From positions 477,435-541,434 of the forward strand of contig NW_012236510.1 of NCBI RefSeq assembly GCF_000787575.1: a DNA stretch of 64,000 nt, written 5' to 3'. Under the pieces are notes generated by a model. It was not told where the DNA came from, did not search any database, and was given only the letters and a program-made list of their open reading frames with translations. This document shows, piece by piece, positions 9,626 to 11,954 of the stretch (the stretch's first letter is position 1; each line of letters opens with the position of its first letter). The translations under genes and the position numbers were made by a program. This DNA comes from Acytostelium subglobosum LB1 (taxonomy: Eukaryota > Evosea > Eumycetozoa > Acytosteliales > Acytosteliaceae).

Positions 9626-10475
9626 ATGTCGGCCTCAACCACCACCACTACCACTGCCACCGCTGCCCCAGCCAAGAAGTGTGTCCAGACACACGGAAAG
9701 AAGGTACAGTACAAAGATTGACATGTGATGCGATGCGATACGCTATGCGGCGATGACAACACAACACAACAATCCTATTCCCCTTCCCAAGTAGCATAGG
9801 CAAGCAAACAGCAATGGGCGCTTGTTGCAAGCAGCCATCTCTGCTACACAGCGAGCACGCACATCGAGCCAGCAGCCAGCGACGCACTCTTTTATACTAT
9901 AGAAGCAGCAGCGAGCAGCAGCAGCCAGCCGCATGCAACAAGCGCCTACTACTGTGCGCAAGCACACGTCACTTGGGTAGTGGATTGTGTCGTTGTGTCT
10001 GTCGGAGAGTGGAGAAGAAGACAACACATATTGCTTAGGAACAGTCGTAACTCACACTTGTGTTCATTCACACATCTATTAGAGAAACGCTGTTGCCGTT
10101 GCTTACACTACCCCAGGTAAGGGCTTAATCCGCGTCAACGGTGTCCCCCTCGAGTTGATCCAGCCAACCACCCTCAGACTGAAGGTCTACGAGCCACTCG
10201 TCCTCTTGCCACCAGCTGCCTACAACCAGATTGACATCCGTGTCCGCGTCAAGGGTGGAGGTCCCGTCTCCCAGATCTACGCCGTGCGTCTGTCCATCGC
10301 CAAGGCCATCGTTGCCTTCCACCAGAAGTACGTCGACGAGCAGTCCAAGAACGAGATCAAGAAGGTTCTCCTCGCCTACGACCGCTCCCTCCTCGTTGCT
10401 GACCCACGTCGCTGTGAGCCAAAGAAGTTCGGAGGTCGTGGTGCCCGCGCGAGATTCCAGAAGTCCTACCGTTAA
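9626..10475 (+). CDS. rps16: 40S ribosomal protein S16 (uS9)
   Basis: Small-subunit ribosomal protein whose C-terminal tail reaches the P-site tRNA. Exon 1 is 9626-9703 (26 codons, Thr/Ala-rich N-terminus, then CVQTHGKK) and exon 2 is 10083-10475; the join is phase 0. The 156-residue product contains [34 protein letters not shown] and the invariant basic C-terminal tail ending RFQKSYR. Codons are the most C-ending in the window, as expected for a highly expressed gene. The 379-nt intron is long for this locus and holds a GC-rich inverted repeat. Confidence 0.97.
9786..9977. other. GC-rich imperfect foldback inside the RPS16 intron
   Basis: The 13-base arms GGCGCTTGTTGCA (9817-9829) and TGCAACAAGCGCC (9934-9946) are perfectly complementary. 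The outer arms CCCAAGT (9786-9792) and ACTTGGG (9971-9977) pair as well. The interior is rich in AGC/CAG triplets, unlike the AT-rich TCAATCA introns elsewhere. Candidates are an intron-encoded structured RNA (a snoRNA is a common guest of ribosomal-protein introns, though I find no clear C/D or H/ACA boxes) or a small foldback element. Confidence 0.4.
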
Positions 10476-10656: not shown

Positions 10657-11954
10657 TCACTTTGTTTGTATTGTCTCAAAGTATTGTAGACGATTGAGAA
10701 GGCTTGCAGATATAGTTCGTCGAGGGCCAGGGGGCGAGAGTGAGGATGGACGGGATGATTCCATTGGTGGCGTGATTGAGCAACAAAGCTCACCAGAGTC
10801 GCCTCGCCACAGTTGGCGTGGTGGTGAGCTGGCTGATCCCGAGCCATCGCTGCCCGTCTCCATGTGAATATGTACAGATGTTGTTGTTGTGGAGCATTGT
10901 TCACCAGTCTCGGATGGTGACTCCATTAAGTTGTTGAGTGAATGTACATTGACTTGTGGGAGTGGACACCAGTATTGGCCGTGATACTGGACGTCTCCCA
11001 CTCCCATCGTGTTGCCCATGTTCTCGAGGTAGAATGACCGCATGATCTCGACGTCCAGGGTCTTTAGTTGGTACTCCTTGGCATTGGCAACACTCCTACA
11101 ATAAAGATGATCGTACAATATCTTTCGGAACTGTTGTTTGGTCAACAGGCTATGTGGCGAAACAGAGAAATACAGGTCCTCACGTCCATTATCACACAAC
11201 AATATTGGGCGGCCATCAGTCGTGAATCGATCGAAACCAAAGTAGAACGATACCTCTTCCACCTCAACTTGGTAGTATTGCTTTATCAGTTCCTTCTTGG
11301 TTGGTGCTATAATATTTGATTGATTTAGTGAGTGGGATTCCTGATGATTACTTCGAAAGAATACATACCTCTATTATATTTACAGTAATGTTCGGTCGTT
11401 AGTTGGATGATGGTCTCGGATGGATCTTGGATAATGGTGCCCAGGAGTACTACTTTCTTGGTGTTGTGCTTGGTCAACTCCATGATGGTCTCAAACGTGT
11501 TGAGTAGTTTATAATCATTGACTCTCATCAGTAATTGTTTGTAATCACCATAGAATATTATACGAACGCCAGAGTTGAGGTAGGCCTCTAGTAACAGGGC
11601 ATTGTTGAGTAGTTCACCTAAGCCGCGGAGGTATCCAATGAACTTGGGCAGGTACTCTGGACCGCGTTGTTCCAAGGTGTAGAACCACATTGGATAGATG
11701 ATGGTGTGGATGCCCTGATCAAACATCATCAACAGGTGGTCCAATAACTTTCGGATGGCACTCTGGGAGTAGATGTCATAGTCGATGCGTACATTGTCGT
11801 CGTGTGGATTTGAGTTTGAATTTAGGCCATGCTCCATCAGGTAACTTCGTCTTGTTCCATCGAACGCATAGACCACGGACTTTTTGGATCCGGTCGACGA
11901 TACCAATTTGGCCACAGACTGATCAGATTGTTCCAGAAATTGAGTAAGCTCCAT
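10657..11954 (-). CDS. Rv3378c-like diterpene synthase/transferase homologue
   Basis: Exons 11954-11369 and 11306-10657 join in phase (AATAGAG|CACCA) to a 411-residue protein. From memory of the family, its order of motifs follows Mycobacterium Rv3378c, the tuberculosinol / tuberculosinyl-adenosine synthase with a cis-prenyltransferase fold. Seen here: AFDGTRR near residues 30-36, whose Asp is the expected catalytic residue; an Asp/Tyr-rich helix (RIDYDIYSQSAIRKLLDHLL); IIFYGDYKQLL near 130-140; PTKKELIKQYY; FYFGFDRFTTDGRPILL; and FRKILYDHLYCR near 255. About 110 extra residues at the C-terminus are Ser/Pro-rich and have no counterpart that I recall. No partner class II cyclase is visible nearby. 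The spliceosomal intron argues against contamination. The family call is fairly strong; substrate and product are unknown. Confidence 0.8.

What the first reader, a model, noticed from the sequence alone, without database searches (positions are those of the whole stretch)
10657..11954. Amoebal homologue of the mycobacterial tuberculosinol/tuberculosinyl-adenosine synthase
The spliced 411-residue protein follows Rv3378c from AFDGTRR through FYGDYK to FGFDRF and ILYDHLY. In mycobacteria this family takes a cyclised C20 diphosphate and either hydrolyses it or transfers it to adenosine. I know of no described role in amoebae. A eukaryotic intron and a new 110-residue tail suggest an old transfer with later adaptation. 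It could make a diterpenoid or prenylated nucleoside signal or defence compound. No class II cyclase partner lies in the window.
Basis: partly seen in the sequence, partly recalled or inferred. Interest (0 to 1): 0.85.

Follow-up and report, generated by a model that had tools for sequence, protein, structure and literature searches.

The report
Amoebal relative of tuberculosinol synthase
A soil amoeba carries two intron-containing genes for enzymes related to the one that makes the tuberculosis terpene-adenosine lipid, but with no sign of the partner enzyme that bacterial relatives usually have beside them, so what the amoeba makes with them is open and testable.

Summary
A two-exon minus-strand gene at 10657-11954 encodes 411 residues, of which 5-301 match Rv3378c, the M. 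tuberculosis tuberculosinol/tuberculosinyl-adenosine synthase (E 4.8e-39). By fold, Rv3378c comes first and cis-prenyltransferases second (exon-1 model). The diphosphate-site residues are kept. A diverged paralogue shares the intron's position and phase.

Relatives found here are Chloroflexota, where a class II diterpene cyclase is on the same locus in 20 of 23 cases, once fused. Rv3378c nests among them; joining the amoebal pair to Rv3378c is disfavoured (AU p 0.022). So this is probably a separate, old branch, not a mycobacterial import. Genome searches found no class II diterpene cyclase in the amoeba, only a cycloartenol-synthase-like gene.

Most likely it ionises a linear allylic diphosphate and lets water, or less likely a nucleoside, take the cation. 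Product and role are not shown. Prior art: a 2014 review (PMC3982062), citing Mann and Peters 2012, mentions 'a hypothetical protein in amoeba' as the only relative of Rv3378c. New member of a known kind.

The parts
11369..11954 (-). Exon 1, residues 1-195 plus first base of codon 196
   Evidence: AlphaFold2 model mean pLDDT 79.2, best PDB fold match Rv3378c
11307..11368 (-). Intron, 62 nt, GT...AG, phase 1, 31% GC; same place and phase as intron 2 of the paralogue on contig C20
10657..11306 (-). Exon 2, rest of codon 196 to residue 411 and stop (10659-10657)
11847..11861 (-). DGTRR, residues 32-36 (Rv3378c D34-R38), diphosphate-binding motif (role recalled)
   Evidence: both Arg in 39 of 39 rows; Asp in both amoebal rows, Rv3378c and 2 outlying rows, Asn in 23 of 23 main Chloroflexota rows
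11769..11771 (-). Tyr62, equals Rv3378c Tyr51
   Evidence: Tyr in 35 of 39 rows; Y51F and Y51F/Y90F Rv3378c proteins were crystallised with substrate (PDB titles)
11652..11654 (-). Tyr101, equals Rv3378c Tyr90
   Evidence: Tyr in 39 of 39 rows
11538..11555 (-). FYGDYK, residues 134-139
11095..11127 (-). RKILYDHLYCR, residues 256-266 (Rv3378c R241, D246, R251 equivalents)
   Evidence: these Arg, Asp and Arg in 39 of 39 rows
10945..10980 (-). GQYWCPLPQVNV, residues 305-316; motif shared with the paralogue and several Chloroflexota homologues
10660..10944 (-). C-terminal tail, residues 317-411; gene-specific, no similarity to the paralogue's tail
   Evidence: (low-confidence model, no conclusion on fold)

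Best explanation
The gene is a eukaryotic, vertically kept member of the Rv3378c family of cis-prenyltransferase-fold diterpene synthases/terpenyl transferases (shown by sequence, and for exon 1 by fold). By homology it binds an allylic prenyl diphosphate with Mg2+ through DGTRR and the conserved arginines. It ionises the diphosphate and lets an acceptor held near Tyr62 and Tyr101 capture the cation (inferred). No class II diterpene cyclase was found, so the substrate is most likely a linear diphosphate the amoeba already has (GGPP or FPP) and the acceptor most likely water, giving a prenyl alcohol such as geranyllinalool or geranylgeraniol (inferred). The gene was acquired long ago from a bacterial lineage like that of Chloroflexota, independently of the mycobacterial acquisition, gained an intron, then duplicated (inferred from tree and introns). 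Rough likelihoods (my estimates): family membership 0.97; active enzyme 0.85; linear substrate 0.65; water as main acceptor 0.55.
For: Sequence: E 4.8e-39 over residues 5-301, only Rv3378c sequences hit up to E 10. Fold: the exon-1 model's 14 best PDB matches are all Rv3378c chains (E 2e-10 to 3.9e-9), next are cis-prenyltransferases from 8.1e-6. Catalytic-site residues kept. Paralogue with the same intron position and phase. Host genes on both sides, with the ribosomal protein S9/S16 frame ending 181 bases away, convergent. Whole-genome searches: one squalene/oxidosqualene cyclase gene only, with DCTAEG; two bacterial class II cyclases as queries found nothing, while a bacterial Rv3378c homologue from one of the same two loci finds both amoebal genes. 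Prenyl diphosphate synthase genes are present at five places. Both amoebal copies have Ser for W39 and Asp for F213, each constant in Rv3378c and 23 of 23 main Chloroflexota rows; this fits a changed substrate, but whether these residues line the pocket was not tested.
Against: No activity, expression or metabolite data. The genome search may miss a class II cyclase split by introns, very diverged, or in unassembled DNA. The two cyclase queries did not ring even the genome's oxidosqualene cyclase, and the tool itself warns that an empty answer without a positive genome shows nothing; the PF01397 search had no positive control. Most bacterial relatives carry a class II cyclase on the same locus, which argues for a cyclised substrate. 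The amoebal Asp32 matches Rv3378c, whose acceptors include adenosine. The amoebal pair's place in the tree is weak (next to L028, 62/94), and the AU test was chosen after the tree was seen.
Confidence: 0.5

Rival explanations
1. It transfers a prenyl or terpenyl group from its diphosphate to adenosine or another nucleoside, as Rv3378c does, making an amoebal prenyl-nucleoside signal or lysosome-active base.
For: Of 39 rows only Rv3378c, the two amoebal copies and two outlying Chloroflexota rows have Asp at position 34; the clade whose gene order fits the kolavelool (water-adding) cluster has Gly (10) or Ala (1), the main Chloroflexota clade Asn (23 of 23). Rv3378c is an adenosine transferase (PMC11476799 passages).
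Against: One characterised enzyme on each side is no test. The acceptor-site residues of Rv3378c were not available here. The Asp is also the general cis-prenyltransferase residue (recalled) and may only serve Mg2+ binding. The data disfavour joining the amoebae with Rv3378c.
Confidence: 0.2
2. It acts on a cyclised C20 diphosphate made by a class II cyclase that the searches missed, giving a halimane-, clerodane- or labdane-type alcohol.
For: 20 of 23 main-clade loci and 8 of 11 loci of the [GA]G[ST]RR clade hold a class II diterpene cyclase on the same locus; one is fused. All 13 genomes have one.
Against: No such cyclase found in the genome by PF13243, PF13249 or two bacterial cyclase queries.
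Confidence: 0.2
3. A conserved but non-catalytic or repurposed member (regulator or lipid-binding protein).
For: Two residues that are constant in Rv3378c and the main bacterial clade differ in both copies; long branch (1.34 changes per site).
Against: Diphosphate-site residues are intact in both copies although these are only 46-47% identical.
Confidence: 0.08
4. Bacterial contamination or assembly artefact.
For: Relatives found in these searches are otherwise bacterial.
Against: Spliceosomal introns in both copies at one shared place, flanking eukaryotic genes, two contigs.
Confidence: 0.01

Closest known systems
Rv3378c, tuberculosinol / tuberculosinyl-adenosine synthase, M. tuberculosis
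   Same: Homologous over residues 5-301 at 32-35% identity, depending on the alignment; D34, R37, R38, Y51, Y90, R241, D246, R251 all kept; same fold by the exon-1 model.
   Different: Eukaryotic gene with intron; W39 to Ser and F213 to Asp; a two-residue insertion just after the TDGRP stretch; GQYWCPLPQVNV and a 95-residue tail; no class II cyclase partner found; separate branch of the tree.
Chloroflexota homologues (L019-L031, L040-L049), mostly beside a class II diterpene cyclase
   Same: Family core at 29-33% identity in alignment A6 (up to 35%); some share the WYPLPQV motif.
   Different: Asn instead of Asp before GTRR in 23 of 23; cyclase on the same locus in 20 of 23 (16 directly next, 1 fused, 3 with a gap of 0.9-1.6 kb).
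Kolavelool synthase Haur_2146 of Herpetosiphon aurantiacus (enzyme named in PMC8131916, passage seen; the gene number is recalled)
   Same: A water-adding terpene synthase of the cis-prenyltransferase family. In the [GA]G[ST]RR clade 8 of 11 loci (L051-L057, L059) have the order cyclase, homologue; in the two loci read on (L051, L055) a methyltransferase-like reading frame follows; Pfam was run on L051. That fits this cluster.
   Different: No Asp in the motif; 82-130 bits against the family profile.
cis-prenyltransferases (PF01255)
   Same: Fold: second-best structural group, E 8.1e-6 and weaker.
   Different: No PF01255 match by sequence; the amoeba has a separate PF01255 locus on contig C28.

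Membership tests
Rv3378c family | Full-length sequence homology | tested here: met
   phmmer 4.8e-39, residues 5-301 to 8-287
Rv3378c family | Catalytic-site residues D34, R37, R38, Y51, Y90 (roles of D34, R37 and R38 recalled; Y51 and Y90 from PDB titles) | tested here: met
   D32, R35, R36, Y62, Y101
Rv3378c family | cis-prenyltransferase-like fold closest to Rv3378c | tested here: met
   exon-1 model, top 14 matches; exon 2 modelled poorly and was not searched
Two-gene pathway (class II diterpene cyclase plus Rv3378c-type enzyme) | Class II diterpene cyclase partner in the genome | tested here: not met
   none found, with the limits of sensitivity told above; usual in the bacterial loci, but not a feature of the enzyme itself (3 of 23 main loci show none on the stretch held)
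Tuberculosinol / tuberculosinyl-adenosine synthase (activity) | Turns tuberculosinyl diphosphate into the alcohol or the adenosine adduct | not testable with these tools
   needs enzyme assay
Mycobacterial origin | Clade with Rv3378c | tested here: not met
   AU p 0.0219, log-likelihood 16.66 lower (test chosen after the tree was seen)
cis-prenyltransferase PF01255 | Profile match over cut-off | tested here: not met
   one search lists no PF01255 up to E 10

The most novel reading that the evidence does not exclude
Social amoebae, which live by phagocytosing bacteria, make their own prenyl-adenosine (or other prenyl-nucleoside) with this enzyme pair, from a linear prenyl diphosphate and without a class II cyclase. 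It would be a eukaryotic counterpart of the tuberculosis lipid that disturbs lysosomes, used as a developmental signal or a phagosome-acting compound.
Probability: 0.13. Interest if true: 0.88.

Novelty: new member of a known kind. Interest (0 to 1): 0.55.

Why it matters
It shows that the enzyme family behind a major tuberculosis lipid is not limited to bacteria. It gives a gene pair in a group of amoebae whose best-studied species are grown and manipulated in the laboratory (general knowledge), where the product can be sought by simple knockouts. The comparison also bears on a question in the tuberculosis literature: PMC11476799 (section 12 read) says that initial efforts to find orthologues outside mycobacteria failed and suggests a plasmid origin. 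Here a Chloroflexota pair (L044) matches both mycobacterial enzymes, in the same order (mycobacterial order from gene numbers, recalled), and Rv3378c nests among its kin.

Tried and rejected
Led nowhere: tblastn of the protein in plasmids and phages, no match; two scans of viral contigs, no relative; first scan of genome contigs with alignment A2, 0 of 91 stretches, its patterns being badly placed; the second, on the exon-2 motifs, gave 13 of 36. Rv3378c itself did not appear in either genome-contig scan although its letters were in the patterns, so absence of a group there is no evidence. A literature search for substrates of Rv3378c gave nothing useful. The exon-2 model was too poor to use (pLDDT 47.5).

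Considered and rejected: contamination (introns, neighbours); direct transfer from mycobacteria; a conserved C-terminal anchor helix in the two amoebal tails (no better than shuffles); the nucleotidase beside the paralogue as a functional partner (no evidence beyond adjacency).

Rows dropped before counts: L036-L039, which repeat L019, L023, L024 and L021.

Full report
What is there. The window lies in an unnamed 30.7 Mb, 56-contig genome. The gene contents (introns, FNIP repeats, eukaryotic ribosomal S9/S16, Rieske, MutS and cullin genes) fit a dictyostelid; the species is not shown. On the minus strand, 11954-11369 and 11306-10657 join across a 62-nt GT-AG intron into 411 codons and a stop. 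The neighbouring ribosomal protein gene converges on it (reading frame 10083-10475).

Is it real? Among 177,635 distinct PDB sequences the protein hits four up to E 10, all Rv3378c, at 4.8e-39 to 5.4e-38. A profile of the family (Rv3378c included) gives 7.5e-118 for Rv3378c and nothing else better than 0.12. No Pfam or NCBIfam family reaches its cut-off, so annotation pipelines will tend to call it hypothetical (inference). The AlphaFold2 model of exon 1 (pLDDT 79.2) has Rv3378c chains as its 14 best PDB matches, then cis-prenyltransferases. Exon 2 could not be modelled well.

A second copy. The same genome holds a 367-residue paralogue on contig C20, about 157525-158756, minus strand, 47% identical over the core. 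Its second intron is at the same codon and phase as the window gene's only intron, so intron gain came before the duplication. It has one more intron, which the window gene lacks.

Relatives. A pattern scan of a collection of 84,980 bacterial and archaeal species gave 13 loci, all titled Chloroflexi or Anaerolineae/Anaerolineales. Of 400 genomes drawn from that phylum, 24 have a match, 27 matches in all; four of the 24 were already known. In 20 of 23 distinct loci of the main clade a class II diterpene cyclase lies on the same locus: directly next in 16, fused in one 828-residue frame in L022, and 0.9-1.6 kb off in 3. L028, L046 and L048 have none on the stretch held; for loci that stretch is at most about 1.5 kb each side. 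All 13 genomes hold such a cyclase somewhere. A deeper clade (11 loci) has [GA]G[ST]RR; in 8 of 11 a cyclase is on the locus, upstream of the homologue. In L051 and L055 a methyltransferase-like frame follows (Pfam run on L051), which fits the O-methylkolavelool cluster of Herpetosiphon (paper cited in PMC8131916, passages seen; gene order recalled).

Tree. In a 39-row tree the amoebal pair is one clade (100/100). It lies on the side of the main Chloroflexota clade (branch 75/95), with weak attachment near L028 (62/94). Rv3378c groups with L043-L045 (99/94). Forcing the amoebae with Rv3378c lowers the log-likelihood by 16.66 (AU p 0.0219; the test was chosen after the tree was seen). A 16-row tree also has Rv3378c among Chloroflexota (within a group at 87/94) and the amoebal pair on its own long branch. 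So mycobacteria and amoebae each have a separate branch of a family whose diversity, as far as these collections show, is in Chloroflexota. Other phyla could not be sampled by the whole-genome tool. The long amoebal branch (1.34) makes the donor uncertain.

Residues. R37, R38, Y90, R241, D246 and R251 (Rv3378c numbers) are in 39 of 39 rows; Y51 is in 35 of 39. D34 is Asp in Rv3378c, both amoebal copies and two outlying rows, Asn in 23 of 23 main rows, Gly in 10 and Ala in 1 of 11 rows of the deeper clade. W39 and F213, constant in Rv3378c and 23 of 23 main rows, are Ser and Asp in both amoebal copies. That Y51 and Y90 matter follows from the crystallised Y51F and Y51F/Y90F proteins (titles); other roles are recalled, and no ligand contacts were examined.

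Partner. The genome's only squalene/oxidosqualene-cyclase-like gene found is on C54, with DCTAEG as in cycloartenol-type synthases (motif meaning recalled). Two bacterial class II cyclases found nothing at E up to 10; nor did they ring that C54 gene, so single-protein searches reach only so far. The control, a bacterial Rv3378c homologue from one of the same two loci, finds both amoebal genes at 1.6e-25 and 4.8e-24. PF13243 scores real Chloroflexota cyclases at 4.4e-14 and 1.9e-9, so a similar cyclase would probably have rung unless cut up by introns. PF01397 also found nothing, but its controls did not ring either. The genome does have prenyl diphosphate synthases, four class I terpene synthase-like places (PF19086, five matches, the fifth overlapping a prenyl diphosphate synthase locus) and one cis-prenyltransferase locus.

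How it most likely works. Mg2+ and the DGTRR arginines hold the diphosphate of an allylic prenyl donor; loss of diphosphate gives a cation, which is captured by an acceptor near Tyr62 and Tyr101. Family and residues are shown; reaction, donor and acceptor are inferred. Without a cyclase a linear donor is the simplest choice. Water is the acceptor in the two cases that PMC8131916 names (tuberculosinol and kolavelool synthases; passages). The shared Asp keeps nucleoside transfer open.

What is in print. [quoted passage not shown] So the bare homology is not new; the 2012 paper itself is not held, and which amoeba it meant is not known here. PMC9814783 (section 10 and passages read) reports a 126-member terrabacterial Rv3377c family and that 44% of the clusters with Rv3377c homologues have Rv3378c equivalents. 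PMC11476799 (section 12 and passages read) says initial efforts to find orthologues outside mycobacteria failed. My searches (listings, and passages of some papers) showed no study of the amoebal gene's function, no paralogue, and no statement that Chloroflexota hold the nearest kin of the mycobacterial pair; the library lacks most subscription journals.

A by-product. The L044 cyclase matches the crystallised 'Cyclase' 6vpt at 1.8e-150, next best 2.4e-45; that 6vpt is Rv3377c is recalled. Its neighbour is 48% identical to Rv3378c over 285 columns. This makes a Chloroflexota-like source for the mycobacterial pair worth testing.

Verdict. Real, ordinary as homology, unexplained as biology. New member of a known kind; interest 0.55.

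Noticed in passing
L022:7425-9908: One 828-residue open reading frame joins an Rv3378c-like domain to a class II diterpene cyclase (DADDTA motif): a natural two-step fusion in a Chloroflexota MAG.
   Followed up: partly
L043-L045 (homologue and cyclase), e.g. L044:1438-3894: Chloroflexota gene pair nearest to the mycobacterial pair: the L044 cyclase matches 6vpt at 1.8e-150, its neighbour is 48% identical to Rv3378c; candidate for the kind of source sought in the tuberculosis literature.
   Followed up: partly
L060:1504-2430, L061:118-1188: Two outlying Chloroflexota homologues with DGSRR/DGNRR and no cyclase found on the stretch held; they lack the Y51 equivalent.
   Followed up: no
L030:8282-11347: Two class II diterpene cyclase genes in tandem after the Rv3378c homologue.
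   Followed up: no
L028:3035-7057: The homologue nearest the amoebal pair in the tree is flanked by an MTTB-type methyltransferase and a radical SAM protein with a B12-binding match (just under its cut-off), not by a cyclase.
   Followed up: partly
L017:2077-3168, reading frame perhaps continued to 3875: A 5'-nucleotidase family gene lies next to the paralogue, 3' to 3'; probably chance.
   Followed up: no
window:14027-14126: A run of exactly 100 undetermined bases: most likely an assembly gap of unknown length.
   Followed up: no
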